A DNA stretch of 64,000 bases, from the NCBI GenBank assembly GCA_950295325.1, contig OX485809.1, positions 18,166,001 to 18,230,000 of the forward strand. The letters are read 5' to 3'. A program made the position numbers and the translations under genes. Positions 10,705-51,327 of this stretch are shown here, piece by piece. The notes under the pieces were generated by a model. It was not told the origin of the DNA and ran no database searches. It was given only the letters and a program-made list of their open reading frames with translations. Position 1 is the stretch's first letter, and every line of letters begins with the position of its first letter. This DNA comes from Polytrichum commune (taxonomy: Eukaryota > Streptophyta > Polytrichopsida > Polytrichales > Polytrichaceae).

Positions 10705-11490
10705 TTGTCTCTTGCTTTAACACATTGTCGTCCCAATTACATCCCTTGTTTATTATGGGTTTAGGATAGCGATGGAGTTTGGATTTACGGCACCACTTAC
10801 CCCTACATCACATGGAACAAAGTGTGTTTTGATGATGGTAGAGCATTTTAGCAAGTGAATTGAACACGTTGCCTTACCTCAAAAGTCATCCGAGTTGGCA
10901 GCCATTGCATTTCTAGATTGTATTTTAGCTCATTTCGAAGCACCTACTAAGGTGTTAACTGATCAAGGAAAGAAATTTATTGGTTCATGTGAGGAATGGT
11001 GTACCAACACCCTTATTAATCATCACACTACATCACGAGAGCATCTAGAGGCGGATAATTTAACTGAACGTATTGTTCAAACGGTCAAACGAGGTGTGCA
11101 TATATATATATGGTTTATTACGAGGCAACCATCGTAATTGGAACCTTATACACCCATTGATAGCCATGGTTTACCGTTTCAATAAAAAAATATCATTGGC
11201 TTCGTATAGTCCTTACCAATTGTTGTATGGAAGGAAACATATGTTGCCAAGTTTTGTTTGAGAAACACTGAATCCAGTTGTGGACTTGGATGACCCAAAG
11301 ATTTGGGCTCAATGTCTATATGTTTTATTTGCGGTGAAAAGAAAGGTGCGGCAACCATATTGTTTTGTGACACATAGCAACCAGGCTGGCATATAGCATG
11401 CTTAATTCCGCCCTTGACTTCATTGCCTTTTGGTGATTGGATTTGCCCTCGATGGCAAAGATCTTCGGGACATGCTACGTCTTTGGACAA
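10705..11490 (+). pseudogene. decayed integrase-PHD relic, relative of the DNMT element
   Basis: This aligns with the 3' part of the DNMT element (about 21300-22430). Visible pieces are ...MVEHFSK, LPQKSSELAAIAFLD, VLTDQGKKFIGS (second integrase Asp), EADNLTERIVQTVKRGV (catalytic Glu), NHRNWNLIHPLIAM and SLASYSPYQLLYGRK. After DDPKIWAQCL about 110 residues are missing and the reading jumps, in another frame, straight into the PHD finger (CGEKKGAATILFCD, then GWH and CPRW). It holds several stops and frameshifts. At the position of the in-frame TAA of the DNMT element (21481) this copy has GAG. It proves that the integrase-PHD fusion is a family trait and older than the young element. Whether this family member carried a DNMT cannot be seen, because only the 3' part remains. 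Confidence 0.85.
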
Positions 11491-11727
11491 ATGCTAATTG
11501 TTTATAGGAAGGAAATTCATTATTGTCATAATGACAACATTGTCATTTTTGGTGACTAGACGCCAAATATACGACAAGGCAAAATTTGATGGGTGGAACG
11601 CGGGAAGATTCAACAAAAATCCTCGAAGACAACTAAAGATAGGGCATCACATTTGTACCAAACTTATAAGTCTTGTTGTGATATTTTTATCAAGTTATTC
11701 CTATTATCGTTGGCCAACCCTTAATGT

Positions 11728-13123: not shown

Positions 13124-13477
13124 AATGTCAACCTAAGATGTGAACCTAAGATATGAACCTTATCATTGACATATATTTCTCCGAAACAGTGGTCACTCCT
13201 CTAAGTTACACTATATTAGCTAATGATATTGTGTAGTCCATACAACAAAAATTCTCCGTCTTAGCCAAAGTAAGATGCTGAAAAGTAAGATTGGCCTCCG
13301 TCTTAGCCAAAATTCCTTGCACATGCGTATGTTTTGGCTTGTGCTTTACTTTTGGTTTAGAATGCTTTGCAGCCATCATTATGGCGAGTTTGCCTGCTTC
13401 TTCAACTTAAATTGCATTGTCAATACCCTCCACAATCATAAAATCTTGTAGTAATATGGGTCTTGTTTTATACATTG
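13124..13477. other. interval between solo LTR and DNMT element, nothing recognised
   Basis: Holds a short tandem duplication (two copies of a unit containing GATGTGAACCTAA at 13136-13160) and otherwise AT-rich sequence. Its last bases, TATACATTG, mirror the right flank ATTGTATAC of the DNMT element, which fixes the insertion site of that element. Confidence 0.5.
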
Positions 13478-13909
13478 TGTCACGTGAGGTGACATCGGGG
13501 GCTAAGTCACGTCAATTTAGGAGTAAATGGACTCCACTAGGAGTCCATGTGTGTTGGGATGAGTAACGGACTCCATTGGGAGTCCTAGTTAGTTGTTCAT
13601 CCACTCCATGGATGAACTCCACATAGGATTGGGGTTGTATGGAGAGGAAGGCCTCTTGACTTGCCATTGTTGTCAAGTCAAGTCTTGTGAGTGTGTTTTG
13701 AGAGAGAGAGAGCTTGTTGTTGCTTTCTCATGGCTATGGTGTAATAGATTATGAGTAAAGCCTTTGCATTCTTTCTCCACCACTTGCACTCTTGGATTCT
13801 CCCTTCGTGGAGTGAGAGATAGCTCGACTCTTGTGTGTGAATTTTAGAGTTTCTTAAGCTTTGTAAGGAGACATTTTAGTTTCTTAAGCTTGGAGAGAGA
13901 AACCCTCAT
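13478..13909 (+). repeat. left terminal repeat A1
   Basis: Spans 432 bp and is near-identical to A2 (two C/T differences plus a 2-bp GA-repeat difference). It opens with TGTCACGTGAGGTGACA, an interrupted palindrome holding a CACGTG G-box core, followed by three more imperfect palindromes. Unlike a normal 5' LTR it lacks the B segment that follows A2 at the other end, and the internal leader begins directly after CCCTCAT. Confidence 0.9.
13529..13617. promoter_or_regulatory. cluster of imperfect palindromes in A1
   Basis: Three inverted repeats follow one another: GGACTCCACTAGGAGTCC (13529-13546), GGACTCCATTGGGAGTCC (13568-13585) and GTTCATCC...GGATGAAC (13595-13617). All are preserved in A2. 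They could be protein-binding sites of the promoter or RNA hairpins. The role is inferred only from position in the terminal repeat. Confidence 0.45.
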
Positions 13910-15214
13910 ACTTGACAACAATGTATTCAAATTTTTCATTTTTGGTTGTATTTCTGAGCTAGAATGGTTCAGTATTGAGAGCAAATGAGTGATACAAGTG
14001 TTTGAAAGCTTAGTTTGTCATTTCTTTCAACCCTCAAGAAGATTTTGAGAGAAATCTTTCCATTTTTCTTTTGTTTTCTCTTTGTGTTTTTCTTCAAGTG
14101 TTGATGGTTGAATCTTGAGATTCCATTTGGTCTCAAGATTCTCAAGTCACATCATTCTTGCTTGCAATTTGTAAAAGCAAAGTTTAATTTTTTTTAAATT
14201 TACAAACAAACACAAACCAAATCCGAATTTTTTAAAATTTTTTTTGAAGCTCCGGAGCTCCACGGACACTCTTGGAGCTCTTGGAGCTCCTGGAGCTCCA
14301 ATTCTGCACCCCGGGGCGGGGGGCGGCTAATCACGGGCCGGGGGCGGGCGGGCGGCGCCAGCCGGGCCCTGCGGTGAGGTGGCAGTGGGCCGGGGGCGGG
14401 CGGGCGACAGCCTGGCCAAGGTGGCGGGCGGCGCCAGCCTGGCTCCCCCCCCTTTTTCAAGGTAAGCTCCCCTTAATTAATTAATTGATTAATTTAGTTA
14501 GTTAGCTTAATTAACTTAATTAGGTTAGTTAATTCACTTAGATTAACTTAATTAATTAGGTTCATTAGTTTAAGTTAATTAAGTTAGGTTGAGTTATATT
14601 AAATTAATTAAGTTAATTCATTTAAGTTAATTAAGTTAATTAATTTTTTGTTTTTGTTTTTGTTTTGTTTAATTAAAACTATTTTTTTATTTTTTTATTT
14701 TTTTATTTTTTTTCACATTGTTACTTTCACCTTTCAAACTTGGCATCCAATTCTCACAAACGTTGAGGTTCAAATTTGGGGGCATACTAGCTCCGATTGG
14801 AGTGAAATTTGAGCCTATCTTGTGTGAAATTTGCCAAGGAATCCAATGGCGTAATTGGATTGTTGATTGGAATTCAAAATCATTGCTGAAATTATTAATT
14901 TCAACGCTGATTTTTGTTTTTGGGAGCAAATTAACTCCGATTGGAGTGAAATTTGAGCCTAATTTGTGTGAAATCTTCCTAGGAGTCCATTGGTGCACTT
15001 AGTTTGTTGATTGGAGTCCATAATCACCTTGGAAATGAGCCTTTTCAACGCTGATTTTTCATTTTAATTACCAATCTCAAACCTTTGCACAATTTTGGAA
15101 TTCTGGGGGCATAAACACTTGGCATTTGGCAAGGGATTGCCATTTAGATAGCCCGCAACAGGTGCAGGTTGCCATTACCTTATAGATAGTTGTAGGTTCT
15201 CAAGTGATTATTTT
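13910..15214 (+). other. leader of the DNMT element
   Basis: Non-coding stretch between A1 and gag. It holds a (GGAGCTCTT)-like run and a very GC-rich patch (about 14255-14460), then TTAATTAA-rich sequence (14470-14650), then a tandem pair with a period near 143 bp (about 14780-15060, each copy containing CTCCGATTGGAGTGAAATTTG). No standard tRNA primer-binding site is obvious right after A1. Frames in the GC patch are open only because of composition. Confidence 0.6.
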
Positions 15215-16399
15215 ATGGTGCAAACTAGGAGCCGATATTATCGATCGCCATCACCAGATTACTTGGAGGACGTGCATACCACAAATCTTGAGCCAGAGGT
15301 AGATACCAACGAGGCTTTTGAGCCTATTTCGGCGTTGGACACTACTAGTAGGCTTCGGATTTGGAGTGTCGGCACGTTCGACGAAATGGAGGACGATCGC
15401 CACAATTCAGTGCGTGATCGGTTCTCAGGTCGAGCTGGGGGCATTTCCTTGCCCGATTGGAAACTCCGGTTTCGTACCTGGATTAAGGAGAAACGCCAAA
15501 GGTCTTCCAATTTCAATGATTGGTATGCCTTTGAACTTCTGCCTCAGCATTTGGAGTATGAGGCACTCCAAACTTACGAACGCTGGACAGAGGGTCATCA
15601 GCGACAACTTCGGGAGGTGGAGCAGTATTGGGAGGCCCGGGTTGAGCTTATTTCAGCCCTTAAAGATGGGGCGATTGCTACATTAGCTCCACCCACCTTA
15701 AAGGAGGAGGAATCGCCGGCGGAGTCTAAGGACACGGAACTGGCACTTGGGCCAATGGTGGCTAGCAGTAGCACGGCAACCCTTTCACGGGTGGCACGTG
15801 CTACACAGGCAGCATTGACGGCTGTTGGTCCACCACCTCCGTTTAATCCCCTTACTGAATTTGTCGCACATTTGGAAGTGGAGTATGGTGGGTTTTGGCG
15901 AGACCAGATGCAGCGCATCCAGGATTTCCGCCGAGAGAAGGATGATACTCCACGGACCATGTATACGCGACTCGCGCGATTTGTTGTGGAGTCGGGAGGT
16001 GTTTTTGCTGAGAGTCAGCTTGTTAAAATCTTTTTGTATAAGATTGACAAGCGGCTACTTGAGTTGGCATCACCTCGGATTATCCTCGATTACGAGGGCC
16101 GAGCTACGCTTGCACAAGCGTTTGCCGTGGTTGAGAGATGTGATCGGGCTCTTTGCCAACATGATGCCACGGATATGGTATCTTGGATGACAGAGAGTCC
16201 GAAACCAAGAAGAATTGTCACAGCTACTAGTAGTTTAGCTGAGACTCAACCCGTCAAGGAGCAAAAGATTTTGCATTGTTGGGGTTGTGGAGAAGCTGGT
16301 CATTCGAAGAATGATCCCAATTGTCCTAAGAAGAAGAAAACTCAGCCTTTGGAAAAATTAAAACAAAAGATGGAACCAGTAAAGGCAGGGGACAATTGA
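15215..16399 (+). CDS. gag: Gag polyprotein
   Basis: Structural protein of the retrotransposon particle, 394 codons, starting MVQTRSRYY, the first ATG after the leader. Residues 60-170 are charged and helix-rich. Residues 210-340 hold the retrotransposon-gag core (LTEFVAHLEVEYGGFWRDQ ... TMYTRLARFVVESGG ... LYKIDKRLLELASP). A first zinc knuckle begins at residue 355 (CWGCGEAGHSKNDPNC, spacing CX2CX4HX6C, longer than the canonical CX4H X4C form), followed by a lysine-rich stretch. The frame ends in TGA at 16397-16399. A second, canonical knuckle (CNHCGGTNHDVDHC) continues in the -1 frame from about 16382, so the natural protein probably crosses a frame change between 16330 and 16396. I see no textbook slippery heptamer, so either a programmed shift or a mutation is possible. 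Confidence 0.88.
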   Translation: MVQTRSRYYRSPSPDYLEDVHTTNLEPEVDTNEAFEPISALDTTSRLRIWSVGTFDEMEDDRHNSVRDRFSGRAGGISLPDWKLRFRTWIKEKRQRSSNFNDWYAFELLPQHLEYEALQTYERWTEGHQRQLREVEQYWEARVELISALKDGAIATLAPPTLKEEESPAESKDTELALGPMVASSSTATLSRVARATQAALTAVGPPPPFNPLTEFVAHLEVEYGGFWRDQMQRIQDFRREKDDTPRTMYTRLARFVVESGGVFAESQLVKIFLYKIDKRLLELASPRIILDYEGRATLAQAFAVVERCDRALCQHDATDMVSWMTESPKPRRIVTATSSLAETQPVKEQKILHCWGCGEAGHSKNDPNCPKKKKTQPLEKLKQKMEPVKAGDN

Positions 16400-16578
16400 A
16401 ATGTAACCATTGTGGTGGCACTAATCACGATGTGGATCATTGTTTCCAACTACATCCTGAGATGCGGCCTGCCAGTTATGTCACTGGAAAGTCTCCAAGG
16501 GAGCAGAGTCTTGAGGCTAAGGTGGCAGAGCTTGAGCAAAAGCTTAAATCTTCTGCATCTTTTGCTCAAATTTCTTAG
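16382..16578 (+). CDS. second zinc knuckle and coiled segment of Gag-Pol, -1 frame
   Basis: Open segment in the pol frame, read through from the gag C-terminus. It contains CNHCGGTNHDVDHC (CX2CX4HX4C, canonical nucleocapsid knuckle), then HPEMRPASYVTGKSP and a short heptad-like helix EAKVAELEQKLKSS. It ends at TAG 16576-16578 and continues in frame with PHVSGGTSG. The true upstream junction is unknown, because it lies in the frame-change zone. A stand-alone start is unlikely: no ATG precedes the knuckle. Confidence 0.7.
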
Positions 16579-16584
16579 CCGCAT

Positions 16585-19296
16585 GTGAGTGGTGGCACCT
16601 CGGGTTCGGACATGTATATGTTTGGAGCAGCTGGAGAGGTGGTGGCGGCGGCTTCTACTCGCTCACAAACATTGGCAGATGCGGTGGCTTCCACGAGTGG
16701 TGGTAGCAACGAGGTGCTACATCCTCGCCATGCCGGACCAGCTGATCAAATTGGTCAAGCACGTTTACCTTTGTCATTTGGATTGGTAGACACCACTGTT
16801 GTTGGGGCTAAAAACCCTGTACCTTTGAGAGATGGGGATTCCATCTCGAAGGATGTTACGCAGGCATTGGCATACAAAATTCTCCATATGCCAATTTTCT
16901 CGGGTTCGGAGTTTATGGCTTCGGATTTCAAGCCTGCTGCAGTTTTTCATTTAGCTGGGAGAATGTTAGAAGGTAAGGCGGCTTTGCCATCCCTTCAAGT
17001 ATCCCAAGCTGTGGTTGACGTACCTGTGGTTGACGAGGTGGAGGACTTAGCCAATTTACGAGCAAGTCTTGCGGATGCGGCGATCATTGCTTTTGGTAAG
17101 CAAACTGATATTCCTCCAGCATCAATTTCAGCAGTGGATACGTCATTTTCGAATTATGCGTCGGGAGCGGCATATCTTGCAGACATTTCTGCAAGGCCTG
17201 CTCGCGAACGGCATAATTTGCAACCTGGAGTTGTACGGCTGATGAACGACAAATCTTTGTTTGTCGTTTCACGCACGGATATGCCCACTATCCGTGCTAC
17301 ACCACTGAGAGTTATGATGGATTCCGGTGCTCAACCGGTTATGATTGGCAAAGGACTTGTTGACAGTCTTGGATTGACGCCAGCAAGCTTGGATCCTTGT
17401 CCATTCACTATTGTGACTTCAGTAGGGGGCACTGAACGTGCAACAGGTTACACCAAGGCACCTTTACGTTTGATTTTTCATGTGGGGGCAGGGCCTACTT
17501 ACACTCATTTGTCAATGAAGTATGTTGTTACTAATGCTACCAACTATGATATACTTGTTGGTCAGCAAGCTCTTTACCCACTTGGCTTTGGTTTGGATAA
17601 TTGGACGGAAGAGGCATGGATTAGACCGGGATGGTCCACTGGAGATGGCAGGAAGGTATTTATTCCCGTCACATTTGCAGCCACTGCTATGACTATGGTT
17701 GCGGAGGCAATGTTTGGTTGCAGCGGTTCAGTTGCAGATTTGCCTTGTGCTCCAGTTTTATTGGAGGAAACAATGGACTACACTTGTAATGCGGCAGAAC
17801 AACAATTTTTACCATCTTTTCAAATTCCTGCTCGACATTTCAAGGATCCACCTCCACCATGGCGAACTCCTAGGGAGTTATCCGACCATTGTCGACACAT
17901 TGTAGCGGATTTGGAGCTTGGAGAGGCACCTCCAACTTTATCCTCATTTTCTTTTGCTCAACCCATTCGTTGGCAACCATCATCTGAAGGTATTGTCCTT
18001 GTGGAGATCTTTGGAGGCATTGGCACAGGTTTGGCGGCAGTGTTGGAAGCTGGAATTACAGTTTGGCGATATATTCATGTGGACAATGGGTATGCAGCCA
18101 ACAGAGCCGTCCGACACCACATCCAACAATTGTTGTTGAGATACCCCGCACAATTGTCAGCCTCTGCCATTCATGGATGTTGTAGTCAACTTCCTCAAGA
18201 TGTCACTATGATTAGTGATGAGGATTTGAGAAGGTTGGGCCACGTGGATTTGATTCTTGCAGGATGGCCTTGTCAAGGCCATTCGCGGACAGGAACTGGC
18301 CAGGGATTGGATGATCCTAGGTCTAGTTTGTTTGCGGATTTGACGCGATTGACGCAATGGTGGTTTACCCACCAATCAATTCCACCAGGGTACATTTTCG
18401 AAAATGTACCATTATTGGGTGATACCCGGCACAAAGTGGTGAAGGATGGTGAGTACATTAACCAAATCTTGGGTACTCCAACATTTCTGGATGCTGCATC
18501 TTTGGGATCCTTTGCTCATCGGCCTCGTTGGTTTTGGACCAACTTGGTATCACCTCGGGTGCTTTCAGCGGCGATTGCCCGCATTCCCCGCCTTATGGAT
18601 CGCAAAGTGGATGATATTTTAGATGATCATCGTGTTTCCTTGGCAGTTACCAAGGATGACACCTTGCCATTTGCATTAATTAATAAGGTGGGCATTCCAA
18701 GAGGTGCACTACCTACTTTTGTGACATATCCACAGTCTTTTGCATTTCGATCTCGTGGACCTGGCATGGTTTGGGATTCAAAATCCCAAACTTATGAGGA
18801 GCCTACGGTAGATGAGCGGGAACGCGCCATGGGTTTTCTTACAGGTACCACGGCTGCTCACAAGCTTCAGGAAGGTCAGAGACGTTTCCTATTGGGGCAA
18901 GCTATGGATCTTAATAGCATTGTGTGGATAATTGGAATTTGTCTTGCTGCTCAACAACGTATGGATGACCAATTGCTTACTCTGAGAGCAGAGAACAATG
19001 GTCAGGGGGCAATGGAGCCGCAATTCAAGGATCACATTGAGGTCAATGACACCGAGGGATTATTTCCTTTGAAACTTCATGTTGCGGAAGAGCTTCGAGT
19101 CCAACGTGGTTTTTCGGCTTTGGCCCAAGAGTTTGGGAAGTTGGAGGCCCATAAAATGTTTCCACTTCTACTTCTTGGTGATACTTCATATGTGGATAGC
19201 TATTTAGCTACACAAACTGATTGTAGTGGAGAGGATACGCATTTGGATTCAAGTGCAGATGATGGGGGCAAAGGTGTTGCCCTCTCCACGGACTAG
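16585..19296 (+). CDS. protease - DNA cytosine methyltransferase polyprotein segment
   Basis: Open frame of about 904 codons, the longest in the window, in the pol frame. Residues 1-230 are linker. A retropepsin follows: VMMDSGAQPVMIG with catalytic Asp246, then NYDILVGQQAL. Residues about 470-790 form a C5 DNA methyltransferase: motif I VEIFGGIGTGLAAVLEAG, a motif-II-like stretch RYIHVDN, motif IV AGWPCQGHSRTG with nucleophile Cys563, GLDDPRSSLF, motif VI FENVPLLGD with Glu606, motif VIII DAASLGSFAHRPRWFWTNL (residues 636-654), motif IX-like DERERAMGFLTGTT, and motif X RRFLLGQAMDLNSI. Motifs I and VIII resemble the DNMT3/DRM group, whereas PCQ is the version used by DNMT1, CMT and bacterial enzymes (DNMT3 and DRM have PCN). 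All catalytic residues are present, so de novo methylation is plausible. The last 120 residues are an acidic linker into RT. The listed start is a GTG inside a longer frame; real translation is probably by read-through or processing. Confidence 0.93.
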   Translation: MSGGTSGSDMYMFGAAGEVVAAASTRSQTLADAVASTSGGSNEVLHPRHAGPADQIGQARLPLSFGLVDTTVVGAKNPVPLRDGDSISKDVTQALAYKILHMPIFSGSEFMASDFKPAAVFHLAGRMLEGKAALPSLQVSQAVVDVPVVDEVEDLANLRASLADAAIIAFGKQTDIPPASISAVDTSFSNYASGAAYLADISARPARERHNLQPGVVRLMNDKSLFVVSRTDMPTIRATPLRVMMDSGAQPVMIGKGLVDSLGLTPASLDPCPFTIVTSVGGTERATGYTKAPLRLIFHVGAGPTYTHLSMKYVVTNATNYDILVGQQALYPLGFGLDNWTEEAWIRPGWSTGDGRKVFIPVTFAATAMTMVAEAMFGCSGSVADLPCAPVLLEETMDYTCNAAEQQFLPSFQIPARHFKDPPPPWRTPRELSDHCRHIVADLELGEAPPTLSSFSFAQPIRWQPSSEGIVLVEIFGGIGTGLAAVLEAGITVWRYIHVDNGYAANRAVRHHIQQLLLRYPAQLSASAIHGCCSQLPQDVTMISDEDLRRLGHVDLILAGWPCQGHSRTGTGQGLDDPRSSLFADLTRLTQWWFTHQSIPPGYIFENVPLLGDTRHKVVKDGEYINQILGTPTFLDAASLGSFAHRPRWFWTNLVSPRVLSAAIARIPRLMDRKVDDILDDHRVSLAVTKDDTLPFALINKVGIPRGALPTFVTYPQSFAFRSRGPGMVWDSKSQTYEEPTVDERERAMGFLTGTTAAHKLQEGQRRFLLGQAMDLNSIVWIIGICLAAQQRMDDQLLTLRAENNGQGAMEPQFKDHIEVNDTEGLFPLKLHVAEELRVQRGFSALAQEFGKLEAHKMFPLLLLGDTSYVDSYLATQTDCSGEDTHLDSSADDGGKGVALSTD

Positions 19297-20037
19297 CAAT
19301 CACAGGCTGTGCTGGCACCAATTGGCAATCCTTCTATGAAGAAGGAAACTACGGAGTTTGACGATTGGCCAATTGAAGTGGGGCCAAAGCTTACTGGTGC
19401 CGAAGCACGAAAGGTACGGGCATTTATTCGCTCTTACCGTAATTGTTTTGCCTTTAGTCTTCATGATCTTGAAGGATATAAAGGTAAACCTGTTCGTATT
19501 CAACTCGAGGACGACCACCCTATTTTCAGACGGCCGTACAGACTTAGTACCTCTGAAAGGTTGGGTGTTCAAACTCGATGTCAAGAGTTATTGGCAGCGG
19601 AATTGATTGAACTCTCCAATGGAGAGTATGCTTGTGCCACGGTTATGCCGTCAAAGAAGGATATCTTTGGCAACTGGACGGAAAAACGGATGTGTGGTGA
19701 TTATCGTCCAGTCAACCGCAAGACCAAGTCGGATCGATATCCAATGCCGATGCCGGAGGAGTTATTTGATGCACTAGGATTTTCTAGAATCTTCAGCACT
19801 TTGGATTTGAGGTCTGGTTATCACCAATTACCTTTGTTGTTGGGTGATCGGGTGAAGACCGCGTTTTGGGGAATTGATAAAGATGGCAAGGATCAACTTT
19901 ATCATTGGAAATTTCTGCCATTTGGTCTCAAGAATGCACCAGTTGAATTTCAGCGGGTGATGGACCAATTATTGGCTGGTTTGTCGTTTGCTAGATGTTA
20001 CATTGATGATGTTATCATCTTTAGTAACAGTTCATAG
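19297..20037 (+). CDS. reverse transcriptase, fingers-palm
   Basis: In frame after TAG 19294-19296. Shows the Ty3/gypsy RT order: PIFRRPYRLSTSERLGV, ELSNGEYACATVMPSKKD, KRMCGDYRPVNRKTKSDRYP, FSTLDLRSGYHQL (first catalytic Asp), FLPFGLKNAPVEFQRVMD and CYIDDVIIFSN (19993-20025), whose YIDD box supplies the other two catalytic Asp residues. All catalytic residues are intact. The segment stops at TAG 20035-20037 inside the normally continuous stretch between the YIDD box and the HVRHL helix, so a functional enzyme needs this codon to be read through. Position after the methyltransferase, with a 25-residue linker, suggests the DNMT was inserted between protease and RT of an ordinary pol. Confidence 0.93.
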   Translation, partial: QSQAVLAPIGNPSMKKETTEFDDWPIEVGPKLTGAEARKVRAFIRSYRNCFAFSLHDLEGYKGKPVRIQLEDDHPIFRRPYRLSTSERLGVQTRCQELLAAELIELSNGEYACATVMPSKKDIFGNWTEKRMCGDYRPVNRKTKSDRYPMPMPEELFDALGFSRIFSTLDLRSGYHQLPLLLGDRVKTAFWGIDKDGKDQLYHWKFLPFGLKNAPVEFQRVMDQLLAGLSFARCYIDDVIIFSNSS

Positions 20038-20358
20038 GATCATGTGAGACATTTGCAAGCGATATTTGAACGACTTCAACGGTGGGGACTCCGTTTACAT
20101 CATGGGAAATGTAAGTTTTTCCATGATCAATTGCCCTATTTAGGCCACATGATTGTTCCTGGCGATCTTGGTGTGCAACAGGCGAAGGTGGATGCTTTGC
20201 ACAAAATTCCCGCACCTAGTGATGTACCACGGCTTCGTGCATTTCTAGGATTGGCAAATTATTATAGGAGGTTTGTCAAAAACTTTAGTTTGATTGCCAA
20301 ACCTCTTACCATTCTCACGGGGAAAGACCAACCATGGATTTGGAGTTGGGAACAATAA
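20038..20358 (+). CDS. reverse transcriptase, thumb-connection
   Basis: Continues the same frame: DHVRHLQAIFERLQRWGLRL, KCKFFHDQLPYLGHMIVPGDLGV, RLRAFLGLANYYRRFVKNFS and KPLTILTGKDQPWIW. This is the standard gypsy RT C-terminal part leading to RNase H. It ends at TAA 20356-20358, at a position in the WEQ-x-HAFDTLK motif where related elements usually have Glu or Gln. Confidence 0.9.
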   Translation, partial: DHVRHLQAIFERLQRWGLRLHHGKCKFFHDQLPYLGHMIVPGDLGVQQAKVDALHKIPAPSDVPRLRAFLGLANYYRRFVKNFSLIAKPLTILTGKDQPWIWSWEQ

Positions 20359-21483
20359 CATGCATTTGATACATTGAAGCAGAGGCTCGGTTCAGCGCCA
20401 GTGCTTCGACGCCCGGATGTGTCTAGAGCTTTTCAATTGCACACGGATTGGAATGCAGTGGGATTGGGAGCGGTATTGACACAGAAAGATGAAGAGGGAA
20501 AGGAATATGTGGTGGCTTATGCATCTAGAAGTAATAATAGTGCTGAATCTAATTATTCTTCTTATGAAGGCGAGGCCTTGGCGGCCGTTTGGGCCATTGC
20601 ACATTTTCGACCTTATTTGTATGGGCAGAAGTTTACTTTGGTGACTGATCATCAACCTTTAAAATGGCTTATGGAATCAGATAAGCTCACCGGAAAACTT
20701 GCTAGGTGGGCATTGTTACTTCAGGAATATGATTTTGAAGTTGTTCACCGAGCAGGAATTGCCAACTTGGATGCAGACGGATTGTCTCGCAATCCAAGTC
20801 CTTCAGATGAGGATTTAACTGGGGCCAGGTGGCATGGAGATTGTGATCGTGAGGCAGTGCCGGGTTGGCATGCTGCCACGTATCTCACAATGATGTCGGG
20901 ATTGGCTGCTGAAATCCTTGTGGAAGAGCAAGATGAGGAGATTGATAAATCTCTCATTGTTAGTGATGTGTGGGAAGACCAGGCGGTCTTGCACAAACTT
21001 CAACAAGGGATATTTCCTCTTGGACTATCTTCTATGGAGCGAGATAGAGTTAGTCACCGGATAACAAGGTTTCGTTGGGCAAACAGCTTGTTATTTCGTG
21101 TGTGGCCGAACGGAACGAGGCGCATCGTTCCAAGGCCAGATCAAAGAGCTTCTTTGGTGCGGCAAGTGCACGAGGAGCTTGGACATTTTGGAGTGCGAAG
21201 GACGCATTCTATGTTGCGCAACCAATATTGGTGGACTGGTATGTATCAACAGGTTGCCACTTATGTTTCTCGGTGTGAAGTATGTGACCGGGTCAGGTCA
21301 AGTTTTAATACTTTGTCACCTCAACTTCAGCCTTTACCTATTATGGGCTTGGGATATCGTTGGTCTCTGGATTTTGCCGGACCGCTTACTATCACTCCAC
21401 GTGGTTCCAAATATGTGCTTGTAATGGTGGAGCATTTTAGTAAGTGGATTGAACTCGTAGCTCTTCCCCAAAATTCCTCATAA
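20359..21483 (+). CDS. RNase H and integrase N-terminal part
   Basis: RNase H: LHTDWNAVGLGAVLTQKD, YASRSNNSAESNYSSYEGE, LVTDHQPLKWLME and HRAGIANLDADGLSRNP, with the acidic catalytic positions kept. Then comes an integrase H2C2 zinc domain (HEELGHFGVRRTHSMLRNQ ... YVSRCEVCDRVR, about 21162-21290) and the start of the integrase core with its first catalytic Asp at 21370-21372 (WSLDFAGPL) and MVEHFSKWIELVALPQ. The frame is interrupted at TAA 21481-21483 in the middle of the core. The relic at 10705-11490 has GAG at this codon, so the stop is not a conserved feature of the family. Confidence 0.92.
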   Translation, partial: HAFDTLKQRLGSAPVLRRPDVSRAFQLHTDWNAVGLGAVLTQKDEEGKEYVVAYASRSNNSAESNYSSYEGEALAAVWAIAHFRPYLYGQKFTLVTDHQPLKWLMESDKLTGKLARWALLLQEYDFEVVHRAGIANLDADGLSRNPSPSDEDLTGARWHGDCDREAVPGWHAATYLTMMSGLAAEILVEEQDEEIDKSLIVSDVWEDQAVLHKLQQGIFPLGLSSMERDRVSHRITRFRWANSLLFRVWPNGTRRIVPRPDQRASLVRQVHEELGHFGVRRTHSMLRNQYWWTGMYQQVATYVSRCEVCDRVRSSFNTLSPQLQPLPIMGLGYRWSLDFAGPLTITPRGSKYVLVMVEHFSKWIELVALPQNSS

Positions 21484-22440
21484 TTGGCGGCTATGGCATT
21501 TCTTGATCGAGTTTTGGCACGGTTTGGAGCACCTGCAAAGGTGTTGACGGATCAAGGGAGAGAATTCCTTGGATCTTTCGAGGCTTTGTGTACCAAGGCT
21601 TTGATTGATCATCGGACAACTTCCAGAGATCACCCTGAGGCAGATGGCTTAGCTGAACGAGTTGTTCAGACAGTTAAGCGCGGTTTGCGGAAGTATGGAT
21701 TGCTTCATGGCAACCATCGCGATTGGAACTTGATGTTACCATGGATAGCAATGGGTTATCGTTTCAGCAGGCAAATATCTTTGGCATCCTATAGTCTTTA
21801 CCAACTCTTGTATGGACGGGAACCAATTTTACCTAGCTCGGTGCGAGAGAAATTGGCTCCCGTGGTAAACTTGGATGATCCAGATGTTTGGGCTCAATGT
21901 CTTCATGACCGAGCAGCGTTCTTCCAAAAGGCCATGCCTATGGCTATGGAGAACTTAAATATTGCTCAACATCGTGATACATTACGGTATGCCCGGATCC
22001 GCAGTGGAGCTTATCGACCTCAGGTTCGTAGATTTTCCAAGGGGGATTATGTTTACTTGCAACGGGAGGCGCCTACGACATTGGATGTCAAGGCTGAGCG
22101 CACGATTTTGCGGGTAAAAGATGTCTTGCCAAGTGGTATATTATTGCTTGAAGGCAAAGATGGACAGGAATGTCGTGAGCATTCAAAGAATTGTGCTCCA
22201 TGTCACCTTCCCATCGACGGCTCTGTGCATCCCGAGTTGGCGGTTGTACCACAGGGTCTGCCTTGTTATGTTTGTGGAGAGAAGAAAGGAGCTGCAACAA
22301 TGTTATTGTGCGACCAATGTCAACGTGGATGGCACATGACATGTTTGACACCTCCCATTTTTACTCTTCCTTCTGGCAATTGGGTTTGTCCTCGTTGTCG
22401 GAAAGCCTCTCATTCCGTGGCCGTTAATGGTCATGATTGA
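21484..22440 (+). CDS. integrase core and C-terminus fused to a PHD finger
   Basis: Integrase core with second Asp at 21550-21552 (VLTDQGREFLGS) and Glu at 21655-21657 (DGLAERVVQTVKRGL), spaced as in retroviral-type DDE integrases. QLLYGREPILP and a C-terminal domain (FSKGDYVYLQR ... ILRVKDVLPSGILLLEG) follow. At 22264-22398 there is a complete PHD finger with Cys4-His-Cys3 ligands: CYVCGEKKG, LLCDQCQRGWHMTC, WVCPRC. PHD fingers bind histone H3 tails, so this module may steer integration toward particular chromatin, much as the chromodomain does in chromoviruses. No chromodomain is seen. The frame ends in TGA. The first codon listed is TTG; real synthesis is as part of Pol. Confidence 0.93.
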   Translation: MAAMAFLDRVLARFGAPAKVLTDQGREFLGSFEALCTKALIDHRTTSRDHPEADGLAERVVQTVKRGLRKYGLLHGNHRDWNLMLPWIAMGYRFSRQISLASYSLYQLLYGREPILPSSVREKLAPVVNLDDPDVWAQCLHDRAAFFQKAMPMAMENLNIAQHRDTLRYARIRSGAYRPQVRRFSKGDYVYLQREAPTTLDVKAERTILRVKDVLPSGILLLEGKDGQECREHSKNCAPCHLPIDGSVHPELAVVPQGLPCYVCGEKKGAATMLLCDQCQRGWHMTCLTPPIFTLPSGNWVCPRCRKASHSVAVNGHD

Positions 22441-22765
22441 GAATTTTGTGGATGTTTACCTCATGTTTTAGTGGTGAAGTTGTTATTTAGTTGGTTGGAA
22501 ATTTTATGGAATTAAGACCACATTGAAAGAGTTATCCAAGAATTCAACATTAAATGGTTGAAGGCGATTAAGGATGGGGCTCAAATTGCACCCAGCCTAT
22601 AGTTCTTGGATTACTTTCTCAATCATGAGTTTAATTCCTTAGATTACCACTACCCAATTGAATATGTATAGATGTAGCAACAACTTCATCATGTTCAACA
22701 ACTCTACCGATGAGTGTGTGTGTTCCTAGCCGATTGGAGGGGCTCCTTATCTGCTAGTGGGGGCA
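22441..22765 (+). other. 3' untranslated region with candidate polypurine tract
   Basis: Non-coding. The end GCTAGTGGGGGCA lies immediately before B1 and is the best candidate for a plus-strand primer. No purine tract precedes A2. This placement argues that, during reverse transcription, the 3' repeat begins at B1 rather than at A2. Confidence 0.5.
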
Positions 22766-22872
22766 CTTGAAGAGGTGGTTGTTTAGCATTTTAGTTTGCT
22801 ATTTTATTTTGCTAATTGATGTTGACGACGACACTCGATCTGTTGTGTTTAACGATCTTAGTTTACACGACA
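22766..22872 (+). repeat. repeat segment B1
   Basis: A 107-bp segment from CTTGAAGAGGTGG to TTTACACGACA, repeated with one C/T difference as B2. It is joined to A2 through the dinucleotide GC and is absent from the left end of the element. Confidence 0.9.
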
Positions 22873-22874
22873 GC

Positions 22875-23304
22875 TGTCACGTGAGGTGACATCGGGGGCT
22901 AAGTCACGTCAATTTAGGAGTAAATGGACTCCACTAGGAGTCCATGTGTGTTGGGATGAGTAACGGACTCCATTGGGAGTCCTAGTTAGTTGTTCATCCA
23001 CTCCATGGATGAACTCCACATAGGATTGGGGTTGTATGGAGAGGAAGGCCTCTTGACTTGCCATTGTTGTCAAGTCAAGTCTTGTGAGTGTGTTTTGAGA
23101 GAGAGAGCTTGTTGTTGCTTTTTCATGGCTATGGTGTAATAGATTATGAGTAAAGCCTTTGCATTCTTTCTCCACCACTTGCACTCTTGGATTCTCCCTT
23201 CGTGGAGTGAGAGATAGCTTGACTCTTGTGTGTGAATTTTAGAGTTTCTTAAGCTTTGTAAGGAGACATTTTAGTTTCTTAAGCTTGGAGAGAGAAACCC
23301 TCAT
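22875..23304 (+). repeat. right terminal repeat A2
   Basis: A 430-bp near-identical copy of A1, from TGTCACGTGAGG to AACCCTCAT. The two substitutions relative to A1 are both C in A1 and T here, the pattern left by deamination of methylated cytosine. Confidence 0.92.
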
Positions 23305-23411
23305 CTTGAAGAGGTGGTTGTTTAGCATTTTAGTTTGTTATTTTATTTTGCTAATTGATGTTGACGACGACACTCGATCTGTTGTGTTTAACGATCTTAG
23401 TTTACACGACA
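23305..23411 (+). repeat. repeat segment B2, right end of the element
   Basis: Second copy of B, ending ACACGACA next to the ATTG duplication. With A1 it defines a TG...CA element, so integration appears to have used the left end of A and the right end of B. Confidence 0.9.
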
Positions 23412-23558
23412 ATTGTATACCCTTTTAGGGACACAACTAACCCATATAAATGTCTAAATTTTAATCAATAAATGGCTTACATTCTGACAATGGCTATCAA
23501 CCATTGTAAATTGTATTATTGAGTCTCATATACGAACATATGAATTGATCGTGGAGAA

Positions 23559-44780: not shown

Positions 44781-46554
44781 TATGAGCCCAAAATGGTTGC
44801 TCGTATTTGTTTTATGCTTAAAATTTACTTGAAGTTGCAATTGACGTCGTTATTGAAACAACAAAAAGTATTAAAAAGAGTGAGGCTTGGTGTGGAGTTA
44901 TATTTTAGGCCTTAGGCTTATTTAGTGTGGTTAATTAGAGGGTTAGTGGCATTAGGGGTTGGTTTGGTTAAGTGAGTTGGTGTTTGATGAAGCAAGGGGA
45001 AGGGCCTTGGGTTTAAATGTTTGAATTTGGGCATTCCCATGTTGGTTTAAGGTTGGGGATTTAGTGGATAAGCTTGGGGGTTCCTCTCCACAGGGGTTTT
45101 TATGACCTTGAGGTTTGAGTGTGTGCTCCCTCTCTCTCTCGCGCACTAGGAGAGAGGATGAGCTAGGTTCAAGTTCGGAGATAGACTGGTGGATTCGGCC
45201 AAGACCAGTTGAGTTTTGAGTTCGGAGATAGGCTGGGGATTCGGCCAAGACCAGCTGGGTTTTGAGTTCGGAGATAGACTGGTGGATTCGGCCAAGACCA
45301 GCTAGGTTTTGAGTTTGGAGATAGACCGGGGATTCGGCCAAGACCAACTGGGTTTTGAGTTCGGAGATAGACTGGGGATTCGGCCAAGACCAGCTGGGTT
45401 TTGAGTTCGGAGATAGATTGGGGATTCGGCCAAGACCAGCTGAGTTTTGAGTTCGGAGATAGACTGGGGATTCGGCCAAGACCAGCTGAGTTTTGAGTTC
45501 GGAGATAGACTGGTGGATTCGGCCAAGACCAGCTGGGTTTGGAGTTCGGAGATAGATTGGGGATTCGGCCAAGACCAGTTGGGTTTTGAGTTCGGAGATA
45601 GACTGGGGATTCGGCCAAGACCAGCTGGGTTCAAGTTCGGAGATAGACTGGTGGATTCGGCCAAGACCAGCTGAGTTTTGAGTTTGGAGATAGACTAGTG
45701 GATTCGGCCAAGACCAGCTGGGTTTGGAGTTCGGAGATAGATTGGGGATTCGGCCAAGACCAGCTGGGTTTTGAGTTCGGAGATAGACTGGGGATTCGGC
45801 CAAAACCAGCTGGGTTTTGAGTTCGGAGATAGACTGGGGATTCGGCCAAGACCAGCTGGGTTCAAGTTTGGAGATAGATTGGTGGATTCGGCCAAGACCA
45901 ACTGAGTTTTGAGTTTGGAGATAGACTGGTGGATTCGGCCAAGACCAGCTGGATTTTGAGTTCAGAGATAGATTGGGGATTCGGCCAAGACCAGTTGGGT
46001 TTTGAGTTCGGAGATAGACTGGGGATTTGGCCAAGACCAGTTGGGTTCAAGTTCGGAGATAGACTGGGGATTCGGCCAAGACCAGCTGGGTTCAAGTTCG
46101 GAGATATACTAGGGATTCGGCCAAGACCAGCTGGGTTTAACTTTTTGGGCTAGTCCCGGGTCCACACTAATTACCACAGTTGAATTAAGGTGGGGGTGGT
46201 AGTGGCATCCACCTTGTGACACACACATAGGCTAGTTAGTTAAGATTGGCATATGGGGTTATTCTAAGTAATTAGTTAATCAGTAAGTAGGAAAACCACA
46301 ACATGCTAGGTGGTGGCATTAAGTATTCATTAGATGTGTGGGTTTTACGATGGGGTGTATTACGGGGGTGACATTAGAGTAGAGCGTTTTTCAACGCTTG
46401 TATCCTCGCCATGGAATAAATTGGGGTGCCAAAATTGATGTGAGATGCAATGGGGGTTAATGATGTGGGAAGATTTAATGAGGCTAGCATGAATGTGAGC
46501 CCCGCGCCCTCACCCGGACTACGACGCATGAGGGGTGGGTGGTTTGGCCTCACA
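44781..46554 (+). mobile_element. nested solo LTR with large minisatellite, TSD CCTGG
   Basis: Starts TATGAGCCCAAAATGG (family start with one change) and ends GGTTTGGCCTCACA; CCTGG is repeated at 44776-44780 and 46555-46559. Opposite orientation to the LTR it sits in. Over half of it is a 46/47-bp tandem array. Confidence 0.75.
45168..46138. repeat. 46/47-bp minisatellite, about 21 units
   Basis: The unit reads GTTCGGAGATAGACTGGGGA then TTCGGCCAAGACCAGCTGGG and TTTTGA. Because 46 and 47 are not multiples of three and the unit lacks minus-strand stops, all three minus frames stay open, giving an ORF of 360 codons (44952-46034) with a periodic Ser-Trp-Pro-rich sequence. This is a repeat artefact unless transcription shows otherwise. 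Confidence 0.9.
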
Positions 46555-48154: not shown

Positions 48155-51100
48155 TCAAGCTCGGTATTCCTTGCACCGACTACCTGCTGTGCGTGTGGAA
48201 AAGTTCTCCCCATTTAAGGTTTCTAGTTGCAATGAGTTATTTGGTAATGCTTCCCGGACCAGATAAGGTCCCAACCAGCATGCATCAAACTTACCCAGGA
48301 AGTCAAACTTCCTAGCATCCTGAATCATCACCATCATACATGGCCTCAGTGCCTTTTTCTTGTGTCTTTTGTCGAAGGTGATTTTCCTTCGGCGTTGGAT
48401 GGCCTCGATATGTTGAGCCGCCATCCTCATCCTCTCGTTCAGTTCTTCTAGCGTCGTCAGTCGATTTCTCAATGATTGACTATCCGTAATGCGTGACTTC
48501 ATAGCGATACGCAACGACTTGACTTCGAATTCAATGGATAGCGTAGCCTCCAACCCATACACTAAGGAGAATGGAGTCACTTGCGTTGTCACTTTAAAGG
48601 TTGTGCGATATGCCCATAATGCCGCTGTTAACTTGACGTCCCAATCCCTCTTCGAATCCAACATTGTTTTTCGAAGGATGCTCACCAAGGTCCCGTTAAC
48701 AAGCTCCGTTTGACCATTGGTCTGCGGGTGATCAGGAGTTGTTTTCCTGTGGTCTATCTTAAATCTGGCGGTCAGGTCTTGAAACATCTCGTTCAAGAAG
48801 TGGGTGCCCCTATCGCTAACTAGAATCTTGGGACACCCGAATCTTGAGATGATGTTTTCATACATGAATGTGGCGGCATTGGCGGCCGTGTTTGTCTTCA
48901 CCGCCTTAGCTTCCGCCCACTTAGTTAAGTACTCGGTTGCTACTATGATATAAGCCATGCCTTTAGAAGAATGGGGGTGAACCTCACCAACATAATTTAT
49001 TCCCCACTTCTTAAAATGAACTAGAGGTCAGGACACGTGAAGACGCATCTTCATACGGAGATCATTCCTTGCATACCTCTGGCAAGCATTACACTTCCGG
49101 ACATATTCTTTAGCATCCTTGAACAAGTCCGACCAAAAGTAACATGCTCTAAGTACCTTTTGTCCAGTAAGCAATCCTAAGAAATGCCCACCACATCCAC
49201 TATCATAGCAAATTGCCAATATCGAGGGGGCCTCTATCTCCGACACACATCGCCGTAAGATCCCATCCATTCCCCTCCGAAATAGTCTATGGCCTATCAG
49301 TGTATAGTGCCGACTATTAACTCTTACCTTTATCATTTCCTCCTATGTCCGATCTCCAATCAACTGTTGAGTCATGAGGAACTCCACAATGCCCGAGTAC
49401 CAATCCGCCCAAGCTATCACCAAGAAAAGGTTGTCGTCCCTCAAACTGTCATCCACTGGACTGTCGCCCACCTCATTAGACAACCTTGATAAATGGTCAG
49501 CTTGCAGGTGCATACGACCAGATTCATATTCAACCGTATAATCGAACTCCTCCAAGAGTAGCACCAATCTAGCCAATCTACAACTCAACTCCGCCTTGTT
49601 GACTAAGAATTTGATTGCCATGTGATCAACGAAGAAAACCACCGGATTACATATGAGGTAATGGCGAAATTTCTTGACTGAGAAGACCATGGCCAAGCAC
49701 TCCCTCTCCGTGGTAGAATAGTTTTTCTCTGCCGGTGTCAACTGCCGGCTTGCATACGCCACTGGTTGATCCTTCTCATTTTCTCCCATTGTTTGACATA
49801 ATGCACTACCTACAGCTACTGAGCTAGCATCGCAAAACACATGAAAAGGTTTTCCCCAGTCCGGTGGAACCAACACCGGGTAGGTGCTCAATTTATCCCT
49901 CAACTCCTCGAATGCCCTTTGGCAAGTCTCTGTCCATTCAAACCTATAATCTTTCCTAAGCAACTGCGTAATGGGAACAACTATCTTGGAATAATTTGGA
50001 ATCAACTCACTATACCAACCCACATGTCCTAACAACTTGGCTATTTCCCTAGCATTTGTGGGAGTGGACAATTCATCTATTACAGCTATCTTCTCGGGAT
50101 CCGGCTCTCTTTCCTTCTCACTCATAACATAATCCAATAATACCCTCTTTTGAACACCCAAGAATATCTTGTCCGGATTCAAGGCGAGCTGCATTTTTCT
50201 ACACCTAATCAAAGCCTCCCTAACACACTCTAAATGTGAACTAGCGCTAGACTGAGTGCTAAAATCATCTACGAAAACAGTCATAGACTTGTACAACAAG
50301 TCCGTAAAAATATATATGACCAACCTTTGGAATGTCGCCGGCGCATTATATAAACCAAAAGGCATGACATTCCGAACAAAGGTGCCCCAAGGAGTGGTGA
50401 AGGCCGTCTTATGGATGTCTTGAAGAGCGATGGAAATTTGATTGTAGCCCGCATACCCGTTCATGAACGTATATCTTGCATGACCACCTACCTACCGGGA
50501 GGTCACTTCATTGTCAAGTTGACACCACGTGCGGACAAAGTTTGCTACCCCTATATTATATGCCATATATAATTTTAAAATTTATAATATTTTTTCTACA
50601 TATACATAATCATTGATAGTATCTTTTTTATTTTTTTTTATTTTTTTTAGTCATTTTTATATTTTTTAGTAGTTTTTTTAGTTCAATTCTGTGTCATTCT
50701 AGTTAGAAATTGTATGTTTTATGAAAAAAAAAATCATCAAATTTAGTTACCACTTTTGACTATGTCATAGGTACTGTGTATATCTACTCATGATCCATTT
50801 TGGTCGTACGTGGTGTTCAACTTGACAATGGAGTGATCTACCCGTGTACCTACCTCCTCTAGCAATAGTGTGATGAATGGTAATGGGAAATGATCTTTTT
50901 ATGTGCTCGCATTCAACTTCCGATAATCGACACACACCCTCAACTTCCCATTCTTTTTCTTCACCAAGACCATTGGAGAGATCCAATCCGTAATCTCCAC
51001 CGGCTTAATAAACCTGGCCTTCAACAACCTCTCTAATTCCGCCTTAACCAACAATTGTAATTGTGGGTTCATTTATCTCTCCTTTTGTCTAATTGGCCTA

Positions 51101-51327
51101 GCACCCGGAATCAAAGGAATGCGATGCTCTACCATATCTCTAGGAATCCCCTTAAGCTCATCATACGACCAAGCAAAAAGTGTCACTAAACTCATCCACC
51201 AAATCACTATATTCCTTGATTTCTTTTTCCTCCAACTTAGACCCCATCTTCATTTGGCTAACCTTTCCATTCCGTGTTGTCACATCCACATATTTCTAAT
51301 CCGCTACCGATACATGAGTTTGCTCAT
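48155..51327 (-). pseudogene. Ty3/gypsy pol (RT-RNase H-integrase), interrupted
   Basis: Read leftward: FAWSYDELKGIPRDMVEHR (about 51170), EITDWISPMVLVKKKNGKLR and VCVDYRKLNAS (about 50930), a MITE, then FMNGYAGYNQI, TPWGTFVRNVMPFGL, a damaged active-site region (TVFVDDFST), RNase H (FHVFCDASSVAVGSALCQ, HLQADHLSRLS), the zinc domain (YVRKCNACQRYA), and integrase (ATEYLTKWAEAKAV, ILVSDRGTHFLN, QTNGQTELVNGTL). TAG at 49343-49345 and TGA at 49028-49030 break an otherwise continuous frame; the TGA replaces an expected Trp. No gag or intact protease remains. The style is that of the non-chromodomain plant gypsy lineages. Confidence 0.85.
50479..50862. mobile_element. MITE inserted in the RT of the minus-strand gypsy
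   Basis: Ends ACCTACCTACCGGGAGGTCA and the complement of ...GTGTACCTACCTCC form inverted arms of about 60 bp sharing CATTGTCAAGTTGA and ACACCACGT. It separates the RT block VCVDYRKLNAS from GHARYTFMNGYAG. The middle is AT-rich and non-coding. Exact ends are uncertain by a few bases. Confidence 0.7.

What the first reader, a model, noticed from the sequence alone, without database searches (positions are those of the whole stretch)
17990..18960. DNA cytosine methyltransferase embedded in a Ty3/gypsy pol, between protease and RT
Seen: motifs I, IV (PCQ, Cys563), VI (ENV, Glu606), VIII, IX-like and X in order, in an uninterrupted 904-codon frame that also carries the retropepsin DSG and runs in frame toward RT. 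Known: cytosine methylation normally silences retrotransposons; DNMT-bearing retrotransposons were, as I recall, reported from Klebsormidium and dinoflagellates. Inference: the element could methylate its own cDNA or new insertions, either to hide from host defence or to limit damage, or to alter host methylation. If the host here is not Klebsormidium this would extend the phenomenon or be a separate capture.
Basis: partly seen in the sequence, partly recalled or inferred. Interest (0 to 1): 0.95.

Follow-up and report, generated by a model that had tools for sequence, protein, structure and literature searches.

The report
DNA-methylating retrotransposon family in a moss-like plant
This is one copy of a large family of jumping genes in a moss-like plant that carry their own DNA-methylating enzyme, apparently make it alongside their coat protein, and seem to insert from circular DNA; enzyme-carrying relatives were known from an alga and dinoflagellates, but this layout and life cycle look new.

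The parts
13474..13477 (.). Target-site duplication, left copy (ATTG)
   Evidence: Sequence; equals 23412-23415; perfect 4-bp duplication in 16 of 16 copies tested
13478..13909 (+). Terminal repeat A1 (starts TGTCACG), predicted promoter/R/U5
   Evidence: 98.9% identical to A2; boundaries from target duplication and PBS
13666..13678 (+). Predicted self-primer: 13-mer in A complementary to the PBS (proposed RNA 5' end)
   Evidence: Exact complement in 8 of 8 copies tested, covarying over 3 subfamilies
13910..13922 (+). Primer-binding site (ACTTGACAACAAT) abutting A1
15215..16399 (+). Gag with zinc knuckle; interrupted in this copy by a frameshift
   Evidence: Open frame 15152-16399, weak zinc-knuckle hit; one frame with PR-DNMT in relative P0002
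17299..17442 (+). Retropepsin-like aspartyl protease (MDSGAQPV)
   Evidence: PF13650 E 0.0013, below cut-off; PF13650 precomputed in relatives P0015, P0017-P0019
17989..18969 (+). DNMT3-class C5-cytosine methyltransferase
   Evidence: PF00145; AF2 pLDDT 92.1; DNMT3A/B best in Foldseek and VIA; DNMT3 profile hits E 1e-20
19294..19302 (+). Conserved UAG CAR YYA (here TAG CAA TCA), predicted programmed stop-codon readthrough between ORF1 and ORF2
   Evidence: Also in 30 of 30 fetched loci, 27 distinct copies; motif known from TMV
19297..20358 (+). Reverse transcriptase (stops at 20035 and 20356 in this copy)
   Evidence: PF00078
20359..20733 (+). RNase H
   Evidence: PF17917, PF17919
21136..21636 (+). 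DDE integrase: H2C2 zinc binding and rve core (stop at 21481 in this copy)
   Evidence: PF17921 over cut-off; PF00665 split by the stop, each half below cut-off
22264..22398 (+). PHD finger at the integrase C terminus
   Evidence: PF00628 E 1e-10; nearest solved PHDs CHD4, PHF12, PHF21A
22756..22765 (+). Polypurine-rich tract abutting B1
   Evidence: Sequence; G-rich tract just before B1 in the 7 fetched copies listed
22766..22872 (+). Repeat B1
22868..22879 (.). Palindromic junction CGACA-GC-TGTCA, proposed integrase cutting site
   Evidence: GC between CACGACA and TGTC in 15 of 16 extended copies, TATC in L028
22875..23304 (+). Repeat A2
23305..23411 (+). Repeat B2, right end of the element (..ACACGACA)
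23412..23415 (.). Target-site duplication, right copy (ATTG)

Best explanation
A multicopy Ty3/gypsy retrotransposon family of a bryophyte-like plant that carries a captured DNMT3-class cytosine methyltransferase. SHOWN in sequence: ORF1 = Gag-PR-DNMT, a conserved UAG-CARYYA, ORF2 = RT-RNaseH-DDE integrase-PHD; a PBS complementary to the element's own A repeat; PPT abutting B and PBS abutting A; insertions A-coding-B-GC-A-B and A-coding-B, both with TG..CA ends and 4-bp target duplications. INFERRED: (a) ORF2 is made by leaky UAG readthrough, so DNMT is made and packaged with Gag in excess over RT (about 85%). (b) Reverse transcription is self-primed (about 85%) and makes an ordinary linear cDNA with LTR = B-GC-A. 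(c) That cDNA is circularised, and the DDE integrase nicks both strands after CA in the palindrome GACA-GC-TGTC, leaving the usual 2-nt overhang and inserting the opened circle: 2-LTR circles give A-coding-B-GC-A-B, 1-LTR circles give A-coding-B (about 60%). (d) The packaged DNMT methylates the element's own cDNA or circle, mostly at CG, before or at insertion, so that a new copy enters chromatin already marked (about 50%; camouflage and self-restraint cannot be told apart). (e) The PHD finger steers insertion (about 50%).
For: DNMT identity. Copy number. UAG-CARYYA in 30 of 30 loci (27 distinct copies; L002/L027, L003/L026 and L007/L028 are the same places) with CAATCA, CAACCA, CAATTA, CAGTTA and CAGCCA: the second residue after the stop varies (Ser/Pro/Leu) while the nucleotide pattern holds; ORF2 open for 1037-1048 codons in 12 of 20 loci. 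Self-priming: 8 of 8 copies tested, three subfamilies with different but complementary 13-mers. Ends: 16 of 21 copies B-GC-A-B, 4 B|flank, 1 not found; target duplication 16 of 16; A2|B2 joins the base that borders the PBS to the base that borders the PPT in 15 of 16, and in L018 21 nt are missing exactly there although its A1 is whole. Selection: DNMT core Ka/Ks 0.20 within subfamily 2, against 0.73 in the linker behind it. AGWxC...S motif in 28 of 30 loci (25 of 27 copies) by regular expression. More C/T-type differences per site at CG and CHG than at CHH. Precedent: Symbiodinium DIRS-borne DNMTs methylate CG de novo in yeast.
Against: No expression, protein, methylation or circle data. The related KnitGypsy-Dnmt3 DNMT gave no methylation in yeast, called inconclusive by its authors. 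If either palindrome of a 2-LTR circle could be cut, the reciprocal form A-B-GC-A-coding-B should occur; 0 of 15 left ends read through to the PBS show it. Copies differ by C/T changes at CG and CHG as host-methylated copies would, so the host may do all the methylating. CpG is not depleted in the element (o/e 0.71 inside, 0.55 around). Within subfamily 1 the DNMT ratio is 0.52 on few changes and that of its linker 1.58, and DNMT is less constrained than RT-RNaseH (0.13 and 0.06 within subfamilies); values between subfamilies rest on near-saturated or saturated Ks. DNMT and RT lie in one protein in some relatives (for example P0054, P0086), so the stop is not universal.
Confidence: 0.72

Rival explanations
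1. Ordinary LTR elements with degenerate ends: B1 and B2 arose by local duplication or nested insertion, and integration is from normal linear cDNA.
For: Single copies with odd ends are common in plant genomes (recalled); the window copy is broken.
Against: The same A-coding-B-GC-A-B layout with a matching 4-bp duplication outside A1 and B2 occurs in three subfamilies whose DNMTs are 45% to about 63% identical to each other's nearest window comparison, 12 of 12 such copies tested.
Confidence: 0.03
2. DIRS/PAT-like replication: split repeats because a circle is integrated by recombination, with an uncharacterised recombinase supplied in trans rather than the element's DDE integrase.
For: A-coding-B-A-B is the DIRS arrangement, and the 2018 paper noted it for the Klebsormidium element.
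Against: ORF2 encodes an H2C2+rve integrase with Ka/Ks 0.28-0.29 within subfamilies; insertions have 4-bp target duplications and TG..CA ends, DDE hallmarks (recalled); no tyrosine recombinase domain in the five element ORFs scanned.
Confidence: 0.12
3. The integrase cuts both LTR palindromes in linear cDNA (giving A-coding-B), and the A-coding-B-GC-A-B form arises by end joining of the released B piece or of concatemers, not from circles.
For: Explains both forms and target duplications without a circle; L018's junction deletion fits end joining.
Against: Needs precise re-joining of a 105-107-bp fragment in most insertions (16 of 20 classifiable copies); a circle does this in one step.
Confidence: 0.22
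4. The UAG is a true ORF1 end and ORF2 is translated by re-initiation or from a spliced or separate RNA.
For: Two Marchantia gene models run past the homologous place into RT (P0028; P0031, C terminus); whether by a predicted intron or a sense codon I could not see.
Against: CARYYA kept in 30 of 30 loci; no methionine shared near the start of ORF2 by the three subfamilies (first 20 residues).
Confidence: 0.1
5. The DNMT domain is kept for nucleic-acid binding or virion assembly, not for methylation.
For: It sits in the Gag-side polyprotein; the Klebsormidium relative was inactive in yeast.
Against: Catalytic and SAM-site motifs conserved across the aligned relatives and host copies; Ka/Ks 0.20 within subfamily 2.
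Confidence: 0.15
6. The DNMT was captured separately in this lineage from the host's DNMT3.
For: No native plant DNMT3 could be placed in the tree, so monophyly of retrotransposon DNMTs is not tested.
Against: DNMTs of this element and Klebsormidium P0144 are 42% identical over the aligned core while the match to human DNMT3A is weak (E 1e-7); DNMT-bearing rows share one side of a branch in the RT tree.
Confidence: 0.08

Closest known systems
KnitGypsy-Dnmt3 (Klebsormidium nitens; de Mendoza et al. 2018, PMC5890265)
   Same: Gypsy element with a Dnmt3-class domain in the polyprotein; DIRS-like arrangement of repeats, which the paper gives as A-coding-B-A-B (figure legends); purifying selection. 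In P0144 the DNMT precedes RT and is 42% identical; it falls in the same 93-row RT group.
   Different: Different host lineage; DNMT separated from RT by a conserved UAG-CARYYA; PHD at the integrase end; self-priming, target duplications, one-unit insertions and the palindrome shown here (the paper's main text has no occurrence of readthrough, circular, Gag or PHD).
SymbioDIRS-Dnmt3 and SymbioLINE-Dnmt (Symbiodinium, same paper)
   Same: Retrotransposon-borne DNMTs, Dnmt3 class in the DIRS form; split repeats; CG de novo activity shown in yeast for the DIRS form.
   Different: DIRS and LINE backbones; the DIRS form has a tyrosine recombinase instead of a DDE integrase.
Tf1/Sushi self-priming Ty3/gypsy elements (plant Tcn1 clade; PMC6317226 passages)
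   Same: Self-priming instead of a tRNA-complementary PBS.
   Different: Those are chromoviruses; standard LTRs (recalled); here PHD, DNMT and split repeats.
PAT/DIRS split-direct-repeat elements (recalled; the term seen in the listing)
   Same: A-coding-B-A-B layout.
   Different: They use a tyrosine recombinase and leave no target duplication (recalled).
Tobamovirus UAG-CARYYA readthrough (PMC4132726, PMC2754532 passages)
   Same: Same stop codon and hexanucleotide; 32% readthrough in a plant dual-reporter assay for TMV.
   Different: Here it separates DNMT from RT in a retrotransposon; efficiency unknown.

Membership tests
C5-cytosine methyltransferase (PF00145) | Significant family match with catalytic PC and ENV motifs | tested here: met
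   E 2.1e-10, over cut-off; motifs
DNMT3 class | Non-rearranged motif order and closest sequence and fold match to DNMT3 | tested here: met
DNMT3 class | PWWP and ADD regulatory domains | tested here: not met
   No such Pfam match in the five ORFs
DNMT3 class | Falls within native DNMT3s in a tree | tested here: inconclusive
   Tree with one DNMT3A outgroup on a very long branch; the host DNMT3 search did not complete (18 calls)
Ty3/gypsy | PR, RT, RNase H, H2C2/DDE integrase in that order | tested here: met
   Ty3 is the best PDB match of profile A1, which includes relatives' RT
Ty3/gypsy | Two identical LTRs flanking the coding region | tested here: not met
   A-coding-B-GC-A-B or A-coding-B
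Ty3/gypsy | TG..CA ends and short target duplication (4 or 5 bp in most plant lineages) | tested here: met
   16 of 16 copies
KnitGypsy-Dnmt3 group | Dnmt3-class domain upstream of RT in a gypsy polyprotein with A-coding-B-A-B repeats | tested here: met
   repeat layout of the Klebsormidium element taken
DIRS/PAT | Tyrosine recombinase | tested here: not met
   DDE integrase instead
DIRS/PAT | Split direct repeats | tested here: met
Tf1/Sushi-type self-priming | PBS complementary to the 5' end of the element's RNA | tested here: inconclusive
   Complementarity to a 13-mer in A met in 8 of 8; RNA 5' end not mapped
UAG-CARYYA readthrough cassette | UAG followed by CARYYA | tested here: met
   30 of 30 loci, 27 distinct copies
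UAG-CARYYA readthrough cassette | Measured readthrough | not testable with these tools
   No expression data at hand

The most novel reading that the evidence does not exclude
A retrotransposon that packages a DNMT3-class methyltransferase at Gag stoichiometry and integrates from covalently closed circles: its DDE integrase opens 1-LTR and 2-LTR circles at a palindrome inside the LTR, the circle-junction route once proposed for retroviruses and later dropped (recalled), on DNA that its own enzyme has already methylated.
Probability: 0.35. Interest if true: 0.93.

Novelty: new variant of a known kind. Interest (0 to 1): 0.8.

Why it matters
Retrotransposons are normally targets of DNA methylation; a lineage that seems to have kept its own methyltransferase from charophyte algae to bryophytes makes the purpose of such capture testable in tractable plants such as Marchantia, where relatives are annotated. 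The stop codon gives a concrete hypothesis: enzyme in the particle. The two insertion forms with perfect target duplications offer a natural test of whether a DDE integrase can use circular DNA, a question settled in the negative for retroviruses (recalled).

Tried and rejected
Misassembly: rejected by at least 113 copies in one assembly. tRNA-primed PBS: no TGG-type site directly after A1; the self-complement fits instead. Viral contigs: no relative of the DNMT found with one scan. CpG depletion as evidence of methylation: o/e 0.71 inside the element against 0.55 around it, so no support. Separate capture: see rivals. Host name: 408 Mb, seven contigs of 42-78 Mb that sum to about 406 Mb (lengths); this suits a moss with n = 7 such as Polytrichum (recalled), but nothing tested it, and 'bryophyte-like' rests on the named relatives; among the 20 of 71 papers listed (listing only) I saw no moss that fits. 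Native DNMT3 comparison: the own-genome search with a DNMT3A segment did not complete. Literature: in the listings of searches (7 and 82 empty) I saw no title or abstract start on DNMT retrotransposons of bryophytes or on circle-integrating gypsy elements; I did not open most of those papers. [quoted passage not shown] PMC6453930 (passages) gave nothing on DNMT retrotransposons. The plant LTR classification PMC6317226 has no occurrence of methyltransferase, PHD or Marchantia in its main text.
Full report
WHAT IS THERE. The open frame 16579-19296 carries a protease-like stretch and a C5 methyltransferase domain (PF00145, E 2.1e-10). The surrounding element runs from 13478 to 23411. Upstream is a gag frame with a weak zinc-knuckle match, downstream RT, RNase H, an H2C2/rve integrase and a PHD finger. 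The window copy is dead: a frameshift in gag and in-frame stops at 16576, 20035, 20356 and 21481. It is fairly recent: A1 and A2 are 98.9% identical.

IT IS A FAMILY. The host assembly (408 Mb, 64 contigs) holds at least 113 copies by the DNMT protein search (113 scored of 593 first-look candidates, the window's copy included) and 123 places by PF00145 (123 scored of 352); both are lower bounds and overlap. I read 30 loci (L001-L030), which are 27 distinct copies, because L002/L027, L003/L026 and L007/L028 are the same places. L011-L030 were chosen mostly for long open frames, so fractions of intact copies are biased. Three subfamilies appear: DNMT about 89-96%, 59-64% and 45% identical to the window's (best stretches). 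The RT-to-PHD frame is open for 1037-1048 codons in 12 of 20 loci.

THE STOP CODON. Between DNMT and RT, 30 of 30 loci (27 copies) have TAG followed by CARYYA: CAATCA, CAACCA, CAATTA, CAGTTA or CAGCCA. The residue encoded by YYA changes while the pattern stays. The copies are related, so the independent evidence is the three subfamilies. The same hexanucleotide drives readthrough in tobacco mosaic virus; a plant reporter gave 32% for TMV (passages of PMC4132726 and PMC2754532). Many database relatives also seem to end ORF1 at the homologous place, judged by eye from their C termini; some relatives have DNMT and RT in one protein (P0054, P0086). I infer that Gag-PR-DNMT is the major product.

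THE ENDS. The integrated order is A1-PBS-coding-PPT-B1-GC-A2-B2. Of 21 copies (20 loci plus the window) 16 show B-GC-A-B, 4 end at B against flank (L011, L012, L019, L030), 1 shows no end (L027). In all 16 copies whose two flanks I read, the 4 bases before A1 equal the 4 after the last B: 12 of the first form (window, L013-L018, L020, L022, L023, L024, L029) and 4 of the second. The ends are TGTC..GACA in the main (L030 begins TGTCATGG). The internal junction reads GACA-GC-TGTC in 15 of 16 (L028 has TATC). The base following A1 starts the PBS and B1 follows a purine tract, so the copy that reverse transcription makes should be B-GC-A, coding, B-GC-A. Closing it into a 2-LTR circle and cutting once at the palindrome gives exactly A-coding-B-GC-A-B; a 1-LTR circle gives A-coding-B. 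A nick after each CA around GC leaves the usual 2-nt overhang of integrase processing. The A2|B2 join is exact in 15 of 16 (for L021, L025, L026 and L028 the A1 end was not read and the judgement rests on their subfamily); in L018 it lacks 21 nt right there, with a 4-nt shared sequence, while its A1 is whole; a later deletion is not excluded. Against this: cutting the other palindrome should give A-B-GC-A-coding-B. In 15 left ends read through, a single A runs into the PBS; the sixteenth (L015) was cut off before the PBS. I have no explanation for that bias.

PRIMING. The 13 bases after A1 are ACTTGACAACAAT, ACTTGGCAAGAAT or ACTTGTAAAAGAT in the three subfamilies, and each has its exact complement inside its own A repeat; 8 of 8 copies tested, at most 1 of 2000 shuffles with a match as long (simple shuffles, so a mild control). 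This is the Tf1/Sushi scheme, reported in plants for Tcn1 and TAR lineages (PMC6317226 passages).

RELATIVES. DNMT homologues with named hosts: Marchantia polymorpha, Calypogeia fissa, Sphagnum, Closterium (37 hits, most of them unnamed); a profile search gave 93 with the same named plants except Closterium. RT relatives also include Klebsormidium nitens P0144, whose DNMT is 42% identical. In an RT tree of 112 rows (quick method, root at the midpoint; 112 of 127 proteins with enough RT; the search listed the best 120 of 3733) all 22 rows with DNMT in the same protein fall in one 93-row group (SH-aLRT 100). Its other 71 rows have no DNMT in frame, among them ORF2-only proteins such as this family's own, and inside the group DNMT-bearing rows are scattered (12 changes of label for DNMT before RT, 4 for DNMT after RT). 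The 2018 paper (outline and sections 6, 9, 10, 11 read, PMC5890265) describes KnitGypsy-Dnmt3 as an acquisition in the K. nitens lineage; these data suggest one older capture, but native plant DNMT3s were not in my tree and deep forks of the DNMT tree are poorly supported, so this is a lead.

METHYLATION. Between four disjoint pairs of subfamily 1 copies (8 of the 9 aligned), C/T-type differences per site are 0.036 at CG, 0.040 at CHG, 0.023 at CHH, as might be expected of copies methylated in the plant manner; CpG is nevertheless not depleted. This says nothing about who methylates. In Symbiodinium, DIRS-borne DNMT3s methylate CG in yeast; the Klebsormidium enzyme did not, inconclusively.

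PHD FINGER. Closest solved PHDs are CHD4, PHF12 and PHF21A; several of these read unmodified H3K4 (recalled). A role in choosing insertion sites is a guess.

VERDICT. Real, and a member of the known kind of DNMT3-bearing gypsy elements, with a Gag-side enzyme behind a predicted leaky stop and an integration layout that points to circles. The mechanism of benefit remains open.

Noticed in passing
window 10710-11495: Decayed fragment of a related element: integrase plus PHD finger, about 71% identical at DNA level to subfamily 1 copies.
   Followed up: partly
window 48155-51222, minus strand: A different, interrupted Ty3/gypsy element (RT, RNase H, integrase frames) with 26-31% protein identity to this one.
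   Followed up: no
window 44952-46046, minus strand: 364-codon frame made of a repeated unit (SWSWPNP, GLGRI), open in more than one frame; looks like a repeat array, not a gene.
   Followed up: no
P0113, P0114, P0118, P0127, P0135, P0140, P0141, P0149 (proteins): Environmental proteins with a homologous DNMT match placed after RT instead of before (P0118's match is tiny); all 8 in one RT group of 12 rows.
   Followed up: partly
P0157: A 74%-identical DNMT piece is filed under a bacterial genome bin (Candidatus Obscuribacterales), probably plant DNA in that bin.
   Followed up: no
L014 and L043: A 132-nt tail of repeat A is duplicated in both A1 and A2 of one copy, as expected if both come from one template.
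   Followed up: yes
window 14759-15046: Two diverged 144-nt tandem repeats in the leader between PBS and gag.
   Followed up: no
left ends of 15 copies: The reciprocal product A-B-GC-A-coding-B is absent (0 of 15); unexplained by the circle model without a directional bias.
   Followed up: partly
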